Positions 39,013 to 48,395 of a stretch of 64,000 nucleotides of DNA are shown piece by piece. Position numbers and translations under genes: made by a program. How positions within the stretch are numbered: position 1 is the stretch's first letter; each line of letters opens with the position of its first letter. The notes under the pieces are model-generated. The model searched no databases and had not been told where the DNA came from. It saw only the letters and a program-made list of their open reading frames with translations. The stretch is from Arthrobacter echini (lineage in GTDB: Bacteria; Actinomycetota; Actinomycetes; Actinomycetales; Micrococcaceae): NCBI RefSeq assembly GCF_008107445.1, contig NZ_VSLD01000004.1, positions 124,001 to 188,000 on the forward strand. Reading direction: 5' to 3'.

Positions 39013-39174
39013 GATCTATTTTCGCGTGCACCACTGACATTATGAGGTTCGCGGAAGAGGTTATCCACAGCCAGACTCAATGGCGTCGAGGCGGAATCAC
39101 GCGGCCTAAAAAGTATGGAACAACAATTCGTCAGCTTCGCCGTTCAGGGAGTCGAACCGAAGGGAGCGCGGCTA

Positions 39175-40131
39175 TCAGGTCGTCAGTTTGCCCAGTCGGT
39201 GTCTCAGCTTCGCCTCCCGTCCGGGATCTTCTCCGGAGTCCTTCGTCGTCGTGATGTACTCCTGCCCGTAGGTCCTGAGCAGCATGTCATCGACCACTCG
39301 TACGTGACCGGCGGGGAAACGGTACGACATCCTCCGGTCGATCTCCTCCCAATCGACGTCCTCGATCAGACGCCTGAGGGAGTCGACGGTATTGATGCCC
39401 ATCGAATCGAGCAGCGTCAGGAGCCAGTCGTACTGATCTTTGCGGCTCCGCGGATGGTCGGGTATTACTTCCGCGAGCAGCTCGGCGAGCACGTCAGCTG
39501 TCAGATCCGGCTCGCCCTGATGGGAGTCCGCAGCATTCGTGGCCTTTTCCACGGCTGCGGCTGAATGTATCTTGACGAACTCGTCGTCGGCCAGCTCTAT
39601 CAGTCCGGAGGCCAGCGTGAAGGCCCTGTTGATAGCGGGTGACACCTCGCCCAGTGCCTTGTAGCGCACATCGTGCTCGAACTCCGCCCAGGCATGCTGG
39701 AGGACGGTCTTGATCTGCACCTCGAATCGCTGTCCGACACAGGCTGCGCATCCCGGCGGAGTGTTGGCTGACGGCACCTGCAGCACCAGGTGATGCGCCG
39801 CATATCCGACGACGCCCTCCTTCATCTGCTGTGCCTTCTTGTCGATGTTCTCGACAACCAGAAACTGACCGGTCAGAGCGGCGACAACATTGGCGACGTC
39901 AGGCTGGATGTAGGTGATGATGCGGACGCCGAGGATGTCGTCAAGATCGTCGATTCCGTTCCTGTATTTGGCCTGCCCGCGCGCGTCGGTCTTCTGTAGT
40001 TTTTCTCTAGTGGAATCGACGCTCTTCACGCGGCTCTCGATGAGGTGGTAGTTCAGTCCGTCATCTCGTAGTCGTGCTCGAATAGCATCGGCGATGGCGT
40101 CGAGAGAGGAACCCAGGTTCTGTTGGTCCAT
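39175..40131 (-). CDS. RelA/SpoT-type nucleotide pyrophosphokinase at the end of a type I RM operon
   Basis: The 318-residue protein has a synthetase domain only, no HD hydrolase, TGS or ACT domain. Seen are the phosphate-binding R-x-K-x3-S-x3-K at residues 34-44, DDILGVRIITYI (65-75), the nucleotide-stacking Tyr in VVGYAAHHLVL, and EVQIKTVLQHAWAEFEHDV (137-155). The usual GYRSxH is GYAAHH. The last ~150 residues are a separate helical domain without a recognised fold. It starts 50 bases after the hsdR stop on the same strand. It may make (p)ppGpp or another pyrophosphorylated nucleotide or, like toxSAS toxins, modify another target. Confidence 0.82.
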   Translation of the reverse strand: MDQQNLGSSLDAIADAIRARLRDDGLNYHLIESRVKSVDSTREKLQKTDARGQAKYRNGIDDLDDILGVRIITYIQPDVANVVAALTGQFLVVENIDKKAQQMKEGVVGYAAHHLVLQVPSANTPPGCAACVGQRFEVQIKTVLQHAWAEFEHDVRYKALGEVSPAINRAFTLASGLIELADDEFVKIHSAAAVEKATNAADSHQGEPDLTADVLAELLAEVIPDHPRSRKDQYDWLLTLLDSMGINTVDSLRRLIEDVDWEEIDRRMSYRFPAGHVRVVDDMLLRTYGQEYITTTKDSGEDPGREAKLRHRLGKLTT

Positions 40132-40181
40132 TGCCAGCCTCGCTAGCTGCAGATCGATCAGGCGTTCCTGCTAGTCGGCCG

Positions 40182-43100
40182 TCATAAGCGCGCCTCCGCG
40201 AAGCGCGGCGCCATGGATTCCATCTGCTCCATGACCAGCTTGATCGCAGCGGGCTGCTTGTCGGGCGGGTAGCCGTACTTGACCAGCAGGCGCTTGATGG
40301 AGGACCGCAGTTTTGCCCGGACGTCGTCGCGCACCGTCCAGTCCGTGCGCACGTCGCGACGCATCACCGAGACCAGGTCACGCGCGATGTCGGCCAGGAT
40401 TCCTTCGCCCTGGACCTCGACGGCCGAATTGTTCGCGGAGACGGCGTCGTAGAAGGCAAGTTCGTCGGAGTTCAGCGGGGGAGTGAAGTGTGTGCCGCGA
40501 TTGCCCTCCTTCGCCACCTCCCGGGCGAGCTCCACCAGTTCGGCGATGACCTCGGCCGAGGTGAGCTGCTGGTTCGTGTACTTCTTCATCAGATCGGTGA
40601 TGCGCTCCGAGAAATTGCGCTGCCGGATGATGTTGTTCCGGGTGGTGGCGGCCGATTCGTCGGCGATGAGCTTCCGGAGCGCCTCGATGGCCAGCTGGGG
40701 GTTCCGCGCCTGCTGGGTCCTCGCGATGAACTCCGGGGTCAGATCATCCAGCGACGGCTTGGGCATGCCGGCTGCGGCGTAGATGTCGAGGATCTCCCCG
40801 GTGGACGTCGACGTCGCGATCAGGTTCCCGAGGAGCCGCTGGATGTCCTCGGGGACGGGCTCGCCCGACGCCTGACGGTCCGCGGCGTCGAACTTGGCCA
40901 TCCAGACGCGGGTCTCCTCGTAGAACTTCACCTCCGGCAGCAGCGGTGCCATGCTCTCCGCTCCCGAACACAGCGCCCACGCACGGGACAGCTGGCCGGA
41001 CAGGCGCCGGTAGGCGGCCGCGACCGTCTCGCCGTCGTCGGCCGGTGCGGACGACGCCGGCTCCCGGAGATGGTTCACGGCACCCGTCACCGCCGTCAGA
41101 TAGGCCTTCGGCCCACCGCGCAGCAGCACCGAGCGCCAGTCGTAGCCGGCGAGCAGTGCGGCGATCCTGCCGACAAGGTCGGTGGTCACCTCGATCGCGT
41201 CGTCGATGCTCCTGCCGACCGGCTTGTTCTGCTGATCCTCCGCCGTGTATTCGGCCAGCGCCTTCGAGAGATTCTCGGCCAGCGGAGCGAATGCCACCAG
41301 CAGGCCGTCCTCCTTGCCGCGGAAGGTCCGGTTGACCCGGGCCAGGGTCTGCATGAGCAGGGCGCCGCGCAGCGGGCGGTCGAGGTAGAGAGTGTGCAGG
41401 GGAGGGGAGTCAAAACCGGTGAGCATCATGTCCTTGACGATCACCAGCTCGAGCTCGTCGTCCACGTCCTTGAGGCGTTCCTTGACCAGCGCGTTCGCGG
41501 AGTCGCGGCGCACGTGGTCGGCAATGGGTCGCGGATCCGACGCCGTACCCGAGTACACCACCTTGATCCGCCCGCGGGACAGGTCCTCCGAGTGCCAATC
41601 AGGACGGAGGGCCACGATGGCGGCGTAGAGATTCGCGCAGATCTCGCGCGTGCCGCCGACGATCATGGCCTTGCCGGGGGCCTCGATGAACTTCGCCATC
41701 CGGTTGCGGCGGTTCTCCCAGTGCTCCACGAGATTCGCGGCGAGGGTGGCGATGCGCTCCGGCGCCCCGTATACGGCATTGACGACGGCGACGCTCGCTT
41801 CGATGCGGGCGCGCTCGGTGACGTCGAGACCCTGGGTGAGCTCGTCGGCGGACCGGTCCAGGTCCTCCTCCGTGACCCCGGCGGCGAGTTCCACCCGGAT
41901 GAGTCGGGGCTCGAAGTAGACCGGCACGGTGGCGCCGTCCTCGACCGCGCGGGAGAGATCGTAGATGTCGATGTAGTCGCCGAACACGTCGCGGGTGTTG
42001 CGGTCGTCGAAGGAGATGGGTGTCCCGGTGAAGGCGATCAGGGTGGCGTGCGGGAGGGCGTCGCGCAGATGACGGGCGTAGCCGTCGAGATCGTCGTAGT
42101 GGCTGCGGTGCGCCTCGTCCACCACCACGATGATGTTCCGCCGGTCCGAGAGCAGCGGGTGCTCGGCACCGACGTCCTTCTCGGCCTTGCTCCGGCCGAA
42201 CTTCTGCAGCGTGGTGAAGTAGATGCCGCCGGTGGTGCGGTTGGAGAGCTCGTCGCGGAGTTCGGCACGACGCCGGATCTGCTTCGGTGCCTCCGGGAGC
42301 AGCAGGCTGCGGGCGAATCCCTCGTACAGCTGCCCGTCGAGCTCGTTGCGGTCGGTGATGACGACGACAGTGGGGTTCTTCAGGCGCGGATGCCGGACCA
42401 CCAGATTGGTGTAGAGCTCCATCTCCAGCGACTTGCCGGAGCCCTGCGTGTGCCAGACGACGCCGGCCTTGCCGTTGCTCTCCACGGCCTGAATGGTGCT
42501 GCCCACGGCCTTGGTGACGGCGAAGTACTGGTGGGGTTTGGCGATGCGCTTCGTGAGCCCGTCGGAGCCGCCGTCGAACGCGGTAAAACTGGTGAGCAGC
42601 TGCAGGAAGCGGGTCTGGTTGTAGAGCCCGTCGAGGCTGGTCTCGAGCTGGGTGACGGCGTCGCCGTCGCGCATGAAGCCGGGCGGTACGGGCACGCCGT
42701 CGTCGTCGACGTTCCAGGGCGAGAAGTGGTTCAGGGGCGTGAACGGCGTGCCGTAGCGGGCGTCGATGCCGTCCGAGGCGAGCGTGAGGACGCAGAACCG
42801 GAAGGCGAGGGGGAACTCGCGCAGGTAGGTCTGCAGTTGTGCGTGGGCTGCGGCGACGTCCGCGTGGTGGCTGCCGGCCTTCTTGAGTTCGATGATGCTC
42901 ACGGGCATGCCGTTGCAGTAGAGCACCAGGTCGAAGCGGCGCTTGTGGTCGCCCTGGACGAGGGTGACCTGGTTGACGGCGAGCCAGCTGTTCTGTTCGG
43001 GCTCGGAACTGATCAGCCGAAGGGTGGGGTTGACCTCCAGCCCGTCGGTGTCGATGTAGCTGAGCCGGTAGCCGTCCACGAGGTAGCCGTGGATCCGGTG

Positions 43101-43379
43101 GTTCTCCGCCAGGGCGTCGGTCGATTTGGGTGCGGTGAGCTCCGCGAGTGCCTGCTGCAGGTACTGCACGGGGACCAGCGGGTTGAACTTCTGCAGTGCG
43201 GCGAGCAGGCGCGGGCGGATCAGCAGCTCGTCCCAGGAGTCCCGTTCGCCGGTGCCGGGTGCTATCTCCTGGCCCGTGGTCGGTGCCCAGCCCAGTTCGC
43301 CGAGGGAGTCCTTGGCGATGCCCTCCCAGTCGGCCTCGGAGAATCCGATGGCCGGAATGCCGGCGGATGCTGTGCTCAC
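40182..43379 (-). CDS. hsdR: Type I restriction enzyme, R subunit
   Basis: The 1065-residue subunit cleaves DNA after ATP-driven translocation. The PD-(D/E)xK nuclease is near residue 155 (RFDLVLY ... IIELKKA), the helicase Walker A is HTQGSGKSLEM (~312), Walker B is VVDEAHRSHYDD (~420), followed by LIAFTGTPI and the second RecA lobe (VIVKDMMLTGFDSPPLHTLY; VNRTFRGKEDGL). All key residues are present. GTG start at 43379 with AGGGGG upstream. The 112-base gap to hsdS is the largest in the operon. Confidence 0.95.
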   Translation of the reverse strand: MSTASAGIPAIGFSEADWEGIAKDSLGELGWAPTTGQEIAPGTGERDSWDELLIRPRLLAALQKFNPLVPVQYLQQALAELTAPKSTDALAENHRIHGYLVDGYRLSYIDTDGLEVNPTLRLISSEPEQNSWLAVNQVTLVQGDHKRRFDLVLYCNGMPVSIIELKKAGSHHADVAAAHAQLQTYLREFPLAFRFCVLTLASDGIDARYGTPFTPLNHFSPWNVDDDGVPVPPGFMRDGDAVTQLETSLDGLYNQTRFLQLLTSFTAFDGGSDGLTKRIAKPHQYFAVTKAVGSTIQAVESNGKAGVVWHTQGSGKSLEMELYTNLVVRHPRLKNPTVVVITDRNELDGQLYEGFARSLLLPEAPKQIRRRAELRDELSNRTTGGIYFTTLQKFGRSKAEKDVGAEHPLLSDRRNIIVVVDEAHRSHYDDLDGYARHLRDALPHATLIAFTGTPISFDDRNTRDVFGDYIDIYDLSRAVEDGATVPVYFEPRLIRVELAAGVTEEDLDRSADELTQGLDVTERARIEASVAVVNAVYGAPERIATLAANLVEHWENRRNRMAKFIEAPGKAMIVGGTREICANLYAAIVALRPDWHSEDLSRGRIKVVYSGTASDPRPIADHVRRDSANALVKERLKDVDDELELVIVKDMMLTGFDSPPLHTLYLDRPLRGALLMQTLARVNRTFRGKEDGLLVAFAPLAENLSKALAEYTAEDQQNKPVGRSIDDAIEVTTDLVGRIAALLAGYDWRSVLLRGGPKAYLTAVTGAVNHLREPASSAPADDGETVAAAYRRLSGQLSRAWALCSGAESMAPLLPEVKFYEETRVWMAKFDAADRQASGEPVPEDIQRLLGNLIATSTSTGEILDIYAAAGMPKPSLDDLTPEFIARTQQARNPQLAIEALRKLIADESAATTRNNIIRQRNFSERITDLMKKYTNQQLTSAEVIAELVELAREVAKEGNRGTHFTPPLNSDELAFYDAVSANNSAVEVQGEGILADIARDLVSVMRRDVRTDWTVRDDVRAKLRSSIKRLLVKYGYPPDKQPAAIKLVMEQMESMAPRFAEARL

Positions 43380-43491
43380 GGTTGTACCCCCTGGTTGACC
43401 GGACTGGCTAGTGGTGGTGCTGGTGTTGCTGGTGCGTTCATCGGCGTTGCTGCCGTGAGCCGCGGCGTTCGAGCTGTTCCCCCAAGTGGCG

Positions 43492-44601
43492 TCATACCCC
43501 GGCGTCCTCCAGCGCCTTCTCGGCGTCCTTCACGCGGAGCTTGCCGGACATGAGCTGGGGGAGCAGGGCGTCGCGGGTAGCGGCAAGGGTGCGGTTCTCC
43601 GTGATGAGCATGTGAGCTGTCTCCCTCAAAGGCTCTGCGATACTCTCGAACAAATTCCGGCTGGGCCCGCTTATCAGAGGGACAAGCGCTTCTCCAAATC
43701 GTTCAGCGCGAACTGCCGGATATGCGCTGCCTTCTGCAACTGTTTCCAAGTATGCGGTGAACTCTGGACGACGCGTAAGTTCATATAAGTACGCCCAGCC
43801 GACGGTCCGCGGAGACAAGACAGCAAAGCCGGTTGAAGCCACCAACAGAGGATCTTCGGACAGATTCAGTGCATGCGATCGACGGTTCGGACGCACCGTG
43901 GACCACAGCGTATCCCCTCGCTGGACCCCTCTTCTTGCTCTCGAAGGAGCATCGTCCCAAAGTGTGATGTCGGGGAAGTCGAATGAACCAACGCCAACCG
44001 CTGCAATGTCAATGTATCGAAGCCCGGTTCCGGGTATCGGTTTAACCTTGGATGCATTGACCTGCGCGATCTCGCCGAGCGGAACCTGCTTCGTGTCGTG
44101 CTGGATAAAGGCTGAAAGTCGAGTTGCAAGAAGTTCGTCTGCAGCAGCGGCAAGCTTGGTGTTGGCGGCGATCTTGTCGTCGAGCGCCCCCAGCACCTCC
44201 GCAACCGCCTGTTGCACATGAATGGCAGGCCAGGACACTCTTAGTGGGTGTAGATGATTGCGGTTCAATGTCGGATTAGCTGATCCCGCGTCGAGCCAAC
44301 TTGTATCAAATTGTTTCATAAAGTAGTAGACAAACCGCGGTAAATTACTTTTGAAGTCTTGGACCCACAGAGTAGTGTCGTGTGGCCAGTAGTGTCCCGG
44401 TAAGTAGAATACTTTCCCCAAAGTTCCCTTGCGACCGATTACTACGCCTGGCCCAGCTGCTGCGGCCGTGTCGTGAAAGCTTGCAATTCCTCCGGAAGAT
44501 ACAACTGGTACACCGCCAGAAGCTTGTGTTTTTCGTGTGATGTCGAAGCCTCGCTGGAAGTTGAGCACCTCCCCGAGCGTTGTGTCGCGCCACTCAGACA
44601 T
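43492..44601 (-). CDS. hsdS: Type I restriction enzyme, S (specificity) subunit
   Basis: The 369-residue subunit has two target-recognition domains separated by conserved helices: TRD1 (~1-130), spacer QQAVAEVLGALDDKIAANTK plus LLATRLSAF, TRD2 (~185-320), and the C-terminal spacer ENRTLAATRDALLPQLMSGK. The ATG at 44601 overlaps the hsdM stop by 8 bases. Both TRDs, TRD1 above all, are visibly more AT-rich and have different codon choice from their neighbours, a sign of recombination or transfer. The recognised sequence cannot be predicted. Confidence 0.93.
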   Translation of the reverse strand: MSEWRDTTLGEVLNFQRGFDITRKTQASGGVPVVSSGGIASFHDTAAAAGPGVVIGRKGTLGKVFYLPGHYWPHDTTLWVQDFKSNLPRFVYYFMKQFDTSWLDAGSANPTLNRNHLHPLRVSWPAIHVQQAVAEVLGALDDKIAANTKLAAAADELLATRLSAFIQHDTKQVPLGEIAQVNASKVKPIPGTGLRYIDIAAVGVGSFDFPDITLWDDAPSRARRGVQRGDTLWSTVRPNRRSHALNLSEDPLLVASTGFAVLSPRTVGWAYLYELTRRPEFTAYLETVAEGSAYPAVRAERFGEALVPLISGPSRNLFESIAEPLRETAHMLITENRTLAATRDALLPQLMSGKLRVKDAEKALEDAGV

Positions 44602-46237
44602 CGACCCGCCCCAACTGCTCCCGCACAATCTGAGCCAGCCGCTCCGACTCGTCGAACTGCTCGAACAACTCCTTCGATAACCGGGCTATCTTCTCCTCGA
44701 CCGGTTCGCCGTCGTCCTCGACCTCTGCCGCGCCAACGTACCTACCCGGGGTCAGCGCATAGTCCGCCGCCTTGATCTCGGCGAGGGTGGCCGAATAGCA
44801 GAAGCCGGGCTCGTCGTCGTACGTCAGGTCTGCCTCGACAGCCGAGGTGGTGCCACGCCAGGCGTGGAAGGTACCGGCGATCCTCGCGATGTCGTCGTCG
44901 GACAGCGCACGCTCGGCACGGTCCACCATGGAGCCCAGGTTCCGGGCATCGATGAACAAGACCTGTCCCGTCCGGTCCACCGAGCCGCGTGCTCCCGCCG
45001 CCTTGTCCCTGGCGAAGAACCACGTGCACACCGGGATGCCGGTGGAGCGGAAGAGCTGGGTGGGCAGTGCCACCATGCAGGAGACGAGATCGGCCTCCAC
45101 GAGCTCCGCACGGATCTCGCCCTCACCACCGGAGTTGGAGGACATGGACCCGTTAGCCATCACCACACCCGCGCTGCCACCCGGTGCGAGCTTGGAGATG
45201 ATGTGCTGGATCCACGCGTAGTTCGCGTTCCCGGCCGGCGGGATGCCGTACTTCCAGCGGGGATCGGACTCGGACCGCGCCCAGTCCTTGATGTTGAACG
45301 GCGGGTTGGCCATGACGAAGTCCGCGCCTTTGGCGCCGGTGAGCTCCGGGTGCTGGTCACGCGCGAACGTATCACCCCAGCGGGAGGCGAGATTGGCGTT
45401 CAGCCCGTGGATGGCCAGATTCATCTTCGCCATCCGCCAGGTGCGCTCGTTGAGCTCCTGCCCGTACACCGAGATGTCCGAGCCCTCCTTGTGATGGGAC
45501 TCCAGGAACTTCTCGGTCTGCACGAACATGCCGCCGGAACCGCAGCAGGGATCGTAGACCCGCCCGTGATCCGGCTCCAGCACCTCCACGAGCACCCGCA
45601 CCACACCGGCGGGAGTGTAGAACTCACCGCCCCGCTTGCCTTCGGCCCGGGCGAACTTCTCCAGGAAGTACTCGTACACCTCGCCCAGCAGATCGCGCGC
45701 CTTGCTCACGCCCTGACCCGTGAACCGTGCGGAGTTGAGCAGATCCATCAGCTCACCGAGCCGGCGCTGGTCCACGTTGTCCCGGTTGAAGATACGCGGC
45801 AGCGTCGCCGCGAGCGAGGGATTGGCCCTCATCACGGCGTCCATGGCGTCGTCGATCAGTTCACCGATGCTCCTGGGTGCCGCTCCGTCGATCGCCGGCA
45901 TGCCCTTGCCGTTCGCCGCGAGATAGTCCCAGCGTGCCTCGTCCGGCACCCAGAAGACGCCGCGCCCGGTGTATTCGTCCACGTCGTCGACGAGCTGCGA
46001 GACCTGGTCCTCGTCGAGGCCCTCGGCCTCCAGTTCGGCGACGATCTGCGTCTGCCGCTCCTCGAACGCATCCGAGACGTACTTGAGGAACACGAGCCCC
46101 AGGATCACGTCCTTGTACTGCGAGGCGTCCATGGAACCGCGCAGCTTGTCCGCGGCCTTCCACAGCGTGTCCTTGAGTTCTTTCATGGTGGACGGGGTGG
46201 CAGGAGCCTTGGTGGCTGCCTTCGTTCTCGGGGGCAC
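44594..46237 (-). CDS. hsdM: Type I restriction enzyme, M (N6-adenine methyltransferase) subunit
   Basis: The 547-residue subunit methylates adenine in the site chosen by HsdS. The N-terminal HsdM helical domain has LVFLKYVSDAFEERQTQ; motif I is VYDPCCGSGGMFVQTE (~230), motif IV is FVMANPPFNIKDW (~308), both intact. The GTG start at 46237 directly follows the TAA of the upstream fusion gene with no spacer (TAAGTG), so translation is probably coupled. It overlaps hsdS by 8 bases. Confidence 0.95.
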   Translation of the reverse strand: MPPRTKAATKAPATPSTMKELKDTLWKAADKLRGSMDASQYKDVILGLVFLKYVSDAFEERQTQIVAELEAEGLDEDQVSQLVDDVDEYTGRGVFWVPDEARWDYLAANGKGMPAIDGAAPRSIGELIDDAMDAVMRANPSLAATLPRIFNRDNVDQRRLGELMDLLNSARFTGQGVSKARDLLGEVYEYFLEKFARAEGKRGGEFYTPAGVVRVLVEVLEPDHGRVYDPCCGSGGMFVQTEKFLESHHKEGSDISVYGQELNERTWRMAKMNLAIHGLNANLASRWGDTFARDQHPELTGAKGADFVMANPPFNIKDWARSESDPRWKYGIPPAGNANYAWIQHIISKLAPGGSAGVVMANGSMSSNSGGEGEIRAELVEADLVSCMVALPTQLFRSTGIPVCTWFFARDKAAGARGSVDRTGQVLFIDARNLGSMVDRAERALSDDDIARIAGTFHAWRGTTSAVEADLTYDDEPGFCYSATLAEIKAADYALTPGRYVGAAEVEDDGEPVEEKIARLSKELFEQFDESERLAQIVREQLGRVDV

Positions 46238-48328
46238 TTACGCGGTTCCTTCGGTCGATACGGGATGGGTCGGCGCATCGGGCACATCGACCCCGGTGAG
46301 GGTGAGGCTTCCGCCGGCGACGCCGTCCAGGATCAGCCTAGCGAGTTCCTCCACGAGTCCGAGCCGTTCCCGCAGGGCATCCTGTTCGTGGCGCAGGCCC
46401 CGCAGCGCCGCGTGGAGCGGAGCGCGCTGCTGCTCCGGCGTCGTGCGCAGCAGCCACCGGCGCCACTCCTTCTCGGATGCGCCGAGGGCGTTGATGTCCG
46501 CGGCCACCACCTCGGCGAGCAGGCCACCGGGATCACCGGCGTCGATCCGGAATGCGCGGGCGGGAAAGACGACGACGGATCCGCCGGCGGTGTCCACCAT
46601 CGCGGCCGGTCGCGGGCTGGTGCAGAACACGACGTCGCCCGGCTCGGTCAACCGGCCCCCGGGAACTTGCTGGACGAAGTCGAGCACCGGAATCCGGCGG
46701 GGCTGCGCCGTCGGGTCGAGGACTTCGGCCGGGCCGAGGAGGGCTGCGCCCCTGGCGGTCTCCTCGCTCGGAGCGTCCCAGCGATTCCCGGGCAGATAGC
46801 GCAGGGTGCGCGCGGCGAGCAGGCGTGCCACCGGGACACGCTCCGGGACGCGCCGACCCCCGGCGGGCCGGTCCGGCCCGGCAGGCACTGCGCCTACGGC
46901 AAAGCCTGCTGCTCCGAGGATCCGGTTCAGGTGCTCCGCGCGGAGGGCGTCCTCGGCTGGACTGCGTTGTGCATCTCGGTGGTGTCCGGTGTCGGTCACA
47001 AGGGATCCGGGCGCCGCGAGCAGGGATCGTGTGCGCACGAGCCGGGCGAACCGGAACGCATGCGCGCGGACGGTCGCGAGATCGCCCATGGACGCCACGA
47101 GGTCACTGACGAGGTCACGCGACACGTCCTGAGTGAGCGCTCGCTGACCGAGATCGGCCACCATGGTCCAGCGGTCGGCGATGGGCACGTCGGCGAAGGA
47201 CGGGCCGAGGACCCAGAGGGCCTGCACCTCCCGGGGCCGGGACCGCAGGAGCCCGGCCGGCAACCGGACGATCGCGCGCACCCGGCCTGCGCGCAAAATG
47301 CCGGACCGGAGATCGGCCGCGTCGCGGCCCGTGACGGTGTCGCTGAGCACGCGCGCCGGCGCGAGGACCACCGCGCGCTGGTGGTCGTCCAGCCGATCGC
47401 TGATCCGTTCGATCGCGGTGAGGATCTCGGCAGTACTCATGGTGAGCTGGCCCGGCGACGGGTACTGGGCGAGGTGCACCAGCGACGAGCTGCCCTCGAT
47501 CGGGTCCGCCACGGGATCGGGGCCGGTGTCCACGCCGTGGACGCGCAGCCGACGGCGGAGGAGCCGGGCCGCCGGGCCGTCGTCGTCCGACGGGACGACC
47601 CTGACCTGGTCCCTCTCGCTCAGCGCATCGACGACGGCCATGAGCACGTCGCCGCCGCCACCGGCCGCGTCGACGAAGCCTGGTTCGCCGTCGAGCCCGG
47701 CCGACAGTTCTACGGCGCTCGTGACCAGGAGCCGCTGAGCGGCATCAGTGAGCGCCGTTGCCGCGAGCTCGGGTGGACCTGTGCGGAACCGGTTGGCGAG
47801 CAGCCCTTCGAAGGCCTCGGCAGCGGTGTAGGCGCTGTCCGCGAGTCGGTCCGCGAAGTGCGCCAGGGAGACGAGGTCGCCGCCCACCGAGGCGATCTCG
47901 GAGAACAGGAACAGATCATCCGGGTCGTGGTCGTCGGCGGTATCCAGGAGCTCGTCGGTGTCGAGGTGCCCCAGCATGCCGCCGGTCAGGGCCTTCAGGG
48001 TGAGCAGGGCCGTCAGACCGTCGAAGCGTGGTCGGCTCGTCTGCTGCTCCTGCCCCTGCGCCTGGGGCCGCGCGAACGCGGCGAGGTCGGCGTCCGCCTC
48101 CGCGTTGTTGCCGCGGCCCGTCGCCGCAAGCCAGGCCGCGACCTCGTCGGCGTCGAAGTGCGGCCGGCCGTTGTCCACGACAACCGGGTCCGGGAACGGA
48201 TGACCCGACCCTGCGCTTCGTGTCCGCCACAGGGAGACCACCGGTCGCTGGACATGCGCGAGCGCCGCAATATCGGTGAGCGTCATGCGCAGGGGCACCC
48301 TGTCGGAGTGCGCCGGTGTGCCGTCCAT
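46238..48328 (-). CDS. HTH - degenerate N6 methylase - specificity-like fusion protein
   Basis: The 696-residue protein leads the RM operon. Residues ~15-70 are a predicted HTH (LTDIAALAHVQRPVVSLWR; ADEVAAWLAAT), like AlpA/MerR-type binders. Residues ~95-480 follow the HsdM layout: motif I is degenerate (FVDAAGGGGDVLMAVV, 218-233), and where NPPF is expected only AQYPSPG is found (287-293). Residues ~520-690 look like an HsdS TRD plus helical spacer (LTEPGDVVFCTS; LRERLGLVEELARLIL). ATG 48328 follows GAGGGGG. It is probably not an active methylase; a DNA-binding regulator or assembly partner of the RM system is inferred. Confidence 0.7.
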   Translation of the reverse strand: MDGTPAHSDRVPLRMTLTDIAALAHVQRPVVSLWRTRSAGSGHPFPDPVVVDNGRPHFDADEVAAWLAATGRGNNAEADADLAAFARPQAQGQEQQTSRPRFDGLTALLTLKALTGGMLGHLDTDELLDTADDHDPDDLFLFSEIASVGGDLVSLAHFADRLADSAYTAAEAFEGLLANRFRTGPPELAATALTDAAQRLLVTSAVELSAGLDGEPGFVDAAGGGGDVLMAVVDALSERDQVRVVPSDDDGPAARLLRRRLRVHGVDTGPDPVADPIEGSSSLVHLAQYPSPGQLTMSTAEILTAIERISDRLDDHQRAVVLAPARVLSDTVTGRDAADLRSGILRAGRVRAIVRLPAGLLRSRPREVQALWVLGPSFADVPIADRWTMVADLGQRALTQDVSRDLVSDLVASMGDLATVRAHAFRFARLVRTRSLLAAPGSLVTDTGHHRDAQRSPAEDALRAEHLNRILGAAGFAVGAVPAGPDRPAGGRRVPERVPVARLLAARTLRYLPGNRWDAPSEETARGAALLGPAEVLDPTAQPRRIPVLDFVQQVPGGRLTEPGDVVFCTSPRPAAMVDTAGGSVVVFPARAFRIDAGDPGGLLAEVVAADINALGASEKEWRRWLLRTTPEQQRAPLHAALRGLRHEQDALRERLGLVEELARLILDGVAGGSLTLTGVDVPDAPTHPVSTEGTA

Positions 48329-48395
48329 GGAAGTCCCCCTCGTGATGTATGGCTTCAGGTTAACCAGCCTCACCCGTGTACTACGGCAGAACAGT

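What the first reader, a model, noticed from the sequence alone, without database searches (positions are those of the whole stretch)
39175..48328. Type I restriction operon carrying an alarmone-synthetase domain at its end
Five minus-strand genes are packed as fusion - hsdM - hsdS - hsdR - RelA/SpoT synthetase with gaps of 0, -8, 112 and 50 bases. RM systems are known to carry back-up toxins (for example anticodon nucleases), and toxSAS/CapRel-type RelA/SpoT domains act in abortive infection. A RelA/SpoT enzyme as the last cistron suggests a two-layer defence: restriction first, then growth arrest by a pyrophosphorylated nucleotide if restriction fails. The link is an inference from gene order.
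Basis: partly seen in the sequence, partly recalled or inferred. Interest (0 to 1): 0.8.

Follow-up and report, generated by a model that had tools for sequence, protein, structure and literature searches.

The report
Alarmone synthetase riding a restriction operon
A soil-type bacterium carries, right behind its DNA-cutting defence genes, an enzyme that probably makes a growth-slowing signal; close relatives keep other genes in that same spot, so it looks like one of several swappable extras and its role in defence is still unproven.

Summary
The five-gene block is real, with the stated gaps. The last gene is a small RelA/SpoT synthetase with its catalytic positions kept. Its nearest solved relatives are RelP/RelQ-type alarmone makers; CapRel is more distant.

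The link to restriction is not conserved. Of 58 fetched regions with this hsdR type, 0 show the synthetase. Of 120 loci holding relatives of the synthetase, 1 has this hsdR, as a broken fragment in Arthrobacter sp. H5.

The sister locus (hsdR 97% identical) matches the window up to hsdR's last codons and again before the next gene; between them it holds an unrelated small protein. Other relatives hold GmrSD, Mrr, a PADLOC candidate and other genes there. So hsdR is followed by a variable accessory slot, and the synthetase is a recent, foreign-looking occupant. The window and H5 synthetases fall in different clades, which suggests two separate pairings; a third relative sits in a DISARM locus. 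A back-up growth-arrest role is plausible but untested.

The parts
39175..40131 (-). Small RelA/SpoT-domain synthetase (318 aa) with a conserved C-terminal region of unknown fold
   Evidence: Pfam RelA_SpoT 4.2e-17; catalytic columns conserved in an alignment of 59 rows, window included; PADLOC PDC-S33 2.7e-14
40132..40187 (-). hsdR-synthetase junction: ATG overlapping the hsdR stop, in-frame TAG at 40173-40171, remnant of the 5' extension
39071..40188 (-). Replaced segment (1118 bases): no similarity to the sister locus L162, which is 94% identical before it and 86% after it
   Evidence: blastn, alignment
40182..43379 (-). hsdR, type I restriction subunit
   Evidence: TIGR00348 2e-133; ELK at residue 164, DEAH at 421; TQGSGKS
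43492..44601 (-). hsdS, specificity subunit (GC3 0.58, unlike its neighbours)
   Evidence: Methylase_S 1.3e-11; PDLC03063 7.7e-82; GC3
44594..46237 (-). hsdM, N6-adenine methyltransferase
   Evidence: N6_Mtase 2e-110; NPPF and DPCCGSG motifs
46238..48328 (-). Conserved first gene: HTH-like start, degenerate HsdM-like part without an NPP[FY] motif, HsdS-like C-terminal part (weak sequence evidence)

Best explanation
A Micrococcaceae type I RM operon (first gene - hsdM - hsdS - hsdR) has a variable accessory slot directly after hsdR. In this genome an actRel/RelS-like small alarmone synthetase has replaced another small gene in that slot, recently and from another source. Shown: gene order, the difference from the sister locus, variability of the slot, conserved catalytic residues, different clades for the two hsdR-linked synthetases. 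Inferred: it is transcribed from the hsd operon; it transfers pyrophosphate from ATP to GTP, GDP or GMP; the resulting pppGpp, ppGpp or pGpp slows growth when the operon is active. Least certain: that this slowing acts as a second defence layer when restriction fails.
For: Catalytic columns R34, K36, S40, K44, D65, R70, G109, Y110, H114, Q139, T142, W148, E152, H153, K158 are the same in 59 of 59 rows; E137 in 53 of 59, window included. Nearest solved chains are YjbM/YwaC-type enzymes at 1.1e-19 to 1.9e-15; 7ztb and 9erv at 1.6e-9 (that 7ztb is CapRel is recalled). A C. glutamicum actRel enzyme, RelS, makes pppGpp, ppGpp and pGpp (PMC5566576, abstract and passages). The sister locus has an unrelated 159-aa gene at the same point, and its genome has only the 31% paralogue. 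Of 19 slot proteins scanned: 3 GmrSD, 1 Mrr, 1 Fic, 1 DUF4357 (= PDC-S14, 4e-116), others listed in the report. GC3 of the synthetase 0.74, of hsdR 0.91, of hsdM 0.87.
Against: Standing in the slot does not prove a defence role: DUF4230 proteins (2), a transposase and a 5'-nucleotidase fragment also follow hsdR. Relatives mostly lie away from the defence genes tested (119 of 120); in 7 loci whose neighbours I scanned, 8 of 10 neighbour proteins had housekeeping-type families and 2 none. The 5' extension is interrupted by a stop, so expression may be weakened. hsdS also has low GC3 (0.58), so low GC3 alone does not date the arrival. No activity was measured. The RelS assignment rests on similarity and a recalled gene location.
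Confidence: 0.6

Rival explanations
1. Neutral passenger: the region behind hsdR is only a recombination hotspot, and the synthetase is a stray housekeeping-type gene with no link to restriction.
For: 119 of 120 loci with a relative lack the window-type hsd genes and the other defence queries tested. Slot contents are mixed. 8 of 10 neighbour proteins scanned around 7 relatives have housekeeping-type families.
Against: Two hsdR-linked copies from different clades, same orientation, about 50 bases after the same hsdR type; defence-type genes recur in the slot.
Confidence: 0.45
2. Back-up growth-arrest layer: the synthetase acts when phage blocks or escapes restriction, as PrrC does for EcoPrrI.
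For: Position, intact catalytic set, slot neighbours, apparent recurrence, and a related gene inside a DISARM locus of a Tsukamurella plasmid. PrrC precedent in PMC12707154 (passages).
Against: Not conserved with the operon (0 of 58 regions); no sensor or antitoxin domain recognised; alarmone-type rather than toxSAS-type sequence.
Confidence: 0.25
3. toxSAS toxin that pyrophosphorylates tRNA.
For: RelA/SpoT domain in a defence locus; match to PADLOC candidate PDC-S33.
Against: Closer to YjbM/YwaC-type enzymes than to CapRel; no constant partner gene in the relatives listed.
Confidence: 0.07
4. The gene is decaying: the stop in its 5' extension marks loss of function.
For: In-frame TAG where relatives continue the reading frame.
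Against: 318 codons with every catalytic residue remain open; an ATG with a Shine-Dalgarno-like GAGG follows.
Confidence: 0.2

Closest known systems
RelS of Corynebacterium glutamicum (actRel small alarmone synthetases; PMC5566576, abstract and passages)
   Same: Actinobacterial, synthetase domain without a hydrolase domain, similar size; Corynebacterium relatives are about 40% identical
   Different: Most Corynebacterium copies listed lie in a shared gene neighbourhood, next to an amylase-domain gene in the one scanned; the window copy lies behind hsdR. RelS itself was not compared
TgvAB inside the Vibrio cholerae VPI-2 type I RM cluster (PMC11411939, passages)
   Same: Second defence genes carried by a type I RM cluster; GmrSD proteins also occur in the slot studied here
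   Different: Embedded inside the cluster and a nuclease pair, not a nucleotide synthetase at its end
DarTG2 between hsdS and hsdR in E. coli (PMC12255303, passages)
   Same: Toxin system carried in a type I RM operon; its site proposed as a recombination hotspot
   Different: Toxin-antitoxin pair in the internal site
PrrC beside EcoPrrI (PMC12707154, passages)
   Same: RM-linked back-up arrest model
   Different: Anticodon nuclease set off when the RM enzyme is inhibited; no such link tested here
CapRel (PMC9712102, passages)
   Same: RelA/SpoT-family synthetase domain
   Different: C-terminal antitoxin domain and tRNA target; profile similarity weaker

Membership tests
actRel/RelS small alarmone synthetase | Synthetase domain without a hydrolase domain | tested here: met
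   RelA_SpoT is the one Pfam family at E up to 0.01
actRel/RelS small alarmone synthetase | Catalytic and G-loop residues conserved | tested here: met
   (which residues are catalytic is recalled)
actRel/RelS small alarmone synthetase | Restricted to Actinobacteria and grouping with Corynebacterium RelS | tested here: inconclusive
   Groups with Corynebacterium and Nocardioides copies, apart from the 30% paralogue (midpoint root, long branches flagged); RelS itself (cg2324) was not in the tree, and a record titled Sporosarcina (L052) also matches
actRel/RelS small alarmone synthetase | Makes (p)ppGpp or pGpp | not testable with these tools
   Biochemistry needed
toxSAS / CapRel | Antitoxin gene next to it or fused antitoxin domain | tested here: not met
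   Upstream gene is hsdR, downstream an HNH-domain gene with a promoter-like site of its own; no Pfam domain in the C-terminal part; the fold of that part was not obtained, so an unrecognised domain is possible
toxSAS / CapRel | Closest sequence relatives with solved structures are toxSAS | tested here: not met
toxSAS / CapRel | Toxic to the host, tRNA pyrophosphorylation | not testable with these tools
Type I RM system | hsdM, hsdS and hsdR with key motifs in one operon-like block | tested here: met
RM-guarding back-up toxin (PrrC-like) | Conserved linkage to the RM operon | tested here: not met
   0 of 58 regions
RM-guarding back-up toxin (PrrC-like) | Activated when restriction is inhibited | not testable with these tools
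   -

The most novel reading that the evidence does not exclude
Actinobacterial alarmone synthetases are repeatedly recruited as growth-arrest cargo by DNA-targeting defence loci: type I RM in two separate lineages and DISARM in a third, giving these systems an alarmone arm.
Probability: 0.2. Interest if true: 0.75.

Novelty: new variant of a known kind. Interest (0 to 1): 0.42.

Why it matters
Type I RM operons are known to carry extra defence genes. If an ordinary alarmone synthetase can serve as such cargo, stringent-response enzymes become a source of defence effectors, and the slot behind hsdR in Micrococcaceae becomes a place to look for untested ones (the recurring small protein with two hydrophobic stretches, and the 386-, 488- and 680-aa proteins without a family).

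Tried and rejected
Conserved hsdR-synthetase module: rejected (0 of 58 hsdR regions; 1 of 120 synthetase loci). toxSAS reading: set low on sequence. Phage or plasmid source: 14 phage records match, covering at most 74% of the query, that best one at 26% identity; 27 plasmid records match, 4 of them covering at least 80% at 26-32% identity; I opened 7 of the 27, one a DISARM locus. Flanking repeats as an insertion scar: nothing convincing. Fold of the synthetase's C-terminal part: not obtained.

Paper searches whose listings showed no report of a RelA/SpoT gene in a type I RM operon: (open-licence library, no preprints; listings seen, and passages of six papers read). Two recalled toxSAS papers are not held.

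Limits of the counts. The 80 named loci are the best 80 of 561 found, with up to 10 kb on each side; 8 of the 80 are shorter than 15 kb in all. The 40 class loci are 40 of the 43 matches outside this family; G549, G471 and G521 were not fetched. No class locus shares an exact 150-base word, near its middle, with a named one. The 58 hsdR regions come from 56 genomes; 4 lack a hsdR match of 950 aa or more; 2 with full hsdR hold under 1200 bases downstream, so a synthetase further on could be missed there. One search used 13 queries beside the synthetase, so other defence genes, and hsdR of distant types, could be missed. My gene caller is rough: it lost most of the window's hsdS, so slot lists are approximate. 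I scanned 19 of 52 slot rows and 11 of 76 rows between hsdS and hsdR.

Full report
What is there. hsdM, hsdS and hsdR are recognised by Pfam and PADLOC, hsdM and hsdR also by NCBIfam, hsdM there below the curated cut-off. hsdM keeps DPCCGSG and NPPF, hsdR keeps ELK and DEAH and TQGSGKS (the stricter pattern had missed it). The last gene has a RelA_SpoT domain (4.2e-17) and matches part of the PADLOC candidate family PDC-S33 (2.7e-14). The window's genome (3.16 Mb, 42 contigs) has one further match to it, 30% identical, on another contig.

The enzyme. In an alignment with 58 relatives the synthetase residues are invariant or nearly so. A profile of that alignment finds YjbM/YwaC-type (RelP/RelQ) chains at 1.1e-19 to 1.9e-15 and two RelA/SpoT-family chains, 7ztb and 9erv, at 1.6e-9; I recall 7ztb as CapRel. 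With the single sequence these two do not appear at E up to 0.01. The C-terminal region is conserved in the family (R278, D281, D282, L284 invariant) but has no credible solved match. The published actRel enzyme RelS of C. glutamicum makes pppGpp, ppGpp and pGpp, and its deletion alone had no growth effect in standard conditions (PMC5566576, abstract and passages). That the Corynebacterium copies found here are RelS orthologues is inferred from similarity, from their shared neighbourhood with an amylase-domain gene in the locus scanned, and from recall that cg2323 is such a gene.

The start. In the relatives looked at the frame usually runs about 20 residues further upstream to a start codon. 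In the window the same frame has an ATG that overlaps the hsdR stop and meets a TAG 14 codons before the ATG at 40131. The RelA_SpoT domain starts at residue 32 counted from 40131, so it is untouched, but the gene may be expressed differently from its relatives.

Is the pairing conserved? No. This hsdR type occurs in 95 of 395 family genomes at E up to 1e-50, own included. I fetched 58 regions around the better hits, from 56 genomes: 54 have a hsdR match of at least 950 aa; of these 41 also show hsdM and 37 the first gene; 0 of 58 show the synthetase. In two of the 54 under 1200 bases downstream are held. In the other direction, the synthetase group at 43-62% identity occurs in 15 of 149 family genomes, own included. 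Among 120 loci with relatives (80 named; 40 from the class sample) 1 has the window's hsdR nearby. That one, L048, is Arthrobacter sp. H5: a C-terminal hsdR fragment of about 195 codons with one internal stop, then an open synthetase frame about 50 bases on if its ATG at 1861 is the start, with a tRNA-Met some 460 bases before the fragment. It has a full hsd operon on another contig (L168), where the 507 bases held after hsdR begin a 5'-nucleotidase-like gene.

How it got there. The sister locus L162 (hsdR 97% identical, same flanking genes) matches the window at 94% down to 40189 and again at 86% from 39070 on, with no match between. There L162 has a 159-aa protein with two hydrophobic stretches (by eye; no membrane prediction was run). 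Eight of the 58 regions have that family behind hsdR. In the hsdR tree (FastTree) the window groups with L162, L163 and L164; L162 and L163 have this family, L164 has no recognised gene there. The simplest reading is that the synthetase replaced this gene after the split from L162. Its GC3 (0.74) is below that of hsdR (0.91) and hsdM (0.87), which fits a foreign source, though hsdS is lower still (0.58). The small-protein family was not found in the window's genome (the tool warns that an empty answer without a positive control shows nothing). In the synthetase tree the window groups with L032, L033, L034 and L071 (100/99) and H5 with another clade of 11 rows (99/92). I read this as two separate pairings; one old pairing followed by losses and exchange is not excluded, but would need loss in the 58 regions.

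The slot. In 35 of 58 regions a same-strand gene follows hsdR within 420 bases by my rough gene caller. Of 19 such proteins scanned (of 52 rows): GmrSD in 3, Mrr in 1, Fic in 1, ankyrin in 1, DUF4357 in 1 (PDC-S14, 4e-116), DUF4230 in 2, transposase in 1, 5'-nucleotidase fragment in 1, and no family in 8, of which 5 belong to the small-protein family. Between hsdS and hsdR, 8 of 11 proteins scanned (of 76 rows) are YhcG-type nucleases; the others are an antitoxin, a DUF3800 protein and a 5'-nucleotidase. Cargo of this kind in type I RM operons is known: TgvAB (PMC11411939), DarTG2 (PMC12255303), PrrC (PMC12707154) (passages).

A third case. Of 7 plasmid hits opened, a Tsukamurella plasmid has a relative (31% identity over 91% of the query) between a cytosine methyltransferase gene and UvrD, DrmA and DrmB genes: DrmA 5e-244, DrmB 4e-8 on a cut stretch, methyltransferase to DrmMII at 1.2e-15 but better to type II. 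The other six opened show no restriction operon beside the match, though the Bacteroides one lies among phage genes.

The first gene. The 711-aa protein occurs in 64 of 395 family genomes at E up to 0.001, a few of these short weak matches. No Pfam, PADLOC or NCBIfam family matches the window's copy at E up to 0.01; 6 of 30 relatives touch N6_Mtase, best 0.00033, and single members touch HTH families at 0.01-0.09. Profile comparison aligns residues 233-392 to HsdM (E 0.053, probability 1%) and 539-685 to HsdS (E 0.0011, probability 20%), both weak. A predicted model (mean pLDDT 81, pTM 0.60) matches type I methyltransferases best, 7eew at 1.7e-11, with low TM-scores of 0.33-0.37 over the whole chain. 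No member of 30 has an [NDS]PP[FYW] motif, against NPP[FY] in 21 of 21 HsdM. I read it as a degenerate HsdM-HsdS fusion with a DNA-binding start, possibly a regulator or an assembly partner.

Verdict. What remains is a recent capture of an alarmone-type synthetase by a slot that in relatives often holds defence-type genes, seen in two genomes from different synthetase clades. Whether it acts in defence needs the bench tests listed.

Noticed in passing
46238-48373: Conserved 711-aa first gene of the operon: HTH-like start, degenerate HsdM-like middle without NPP[FY], HsdS-like end; no Pfam, PADLOC or NCBIfam match for the window copy.
   Followed up: partly
L162:12283-12759 and seven other loci: About 150-aa protein with two hydrophobic stretches (by eye) sits behind hsdR in 8 of 58 regions; no Pfam family for the 5 copies scanned; a candidate effector.
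   Followed up: partly
L163, L164, L168, L176, L178, L199, L205, L213, between hsdS and hsdR: YhcG-type PDDEXK nuclease genes placed inside the operon.
   Followed up: partly
L221:5911-7302: RelA/SpoT-domain protein of 464 aa inside a DISARM-like locus on a Tsukamurella plasmid.
   Followed up: partly
L170:12226-13689, L191:12219-14258, L205:6300-7457: Slot proteins (488, 680 and 386 aa) without a Pfam or PADLOC match.
   Followed up: no
L048:1220-1810: hsdR C-terminal fragment with one internal stop, some 460 bases after a tRNA-Met, followed by an open synthetase frame, in Arthrobacter sp. H5.
   Followed up: yes
L226:5887-6960: (p)ppGpp synthetase gene among phage structural genes on a Bacteroides finegoldii plasmid record.
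   Followed up: no
L052: Record titled Sporosarcina beigongshangi carries a synthetase 45% identical to the window's, in a gene neighbourhood shared with Arthrobacter loci; the title or the assembly may be wrong.
   Followed up: no
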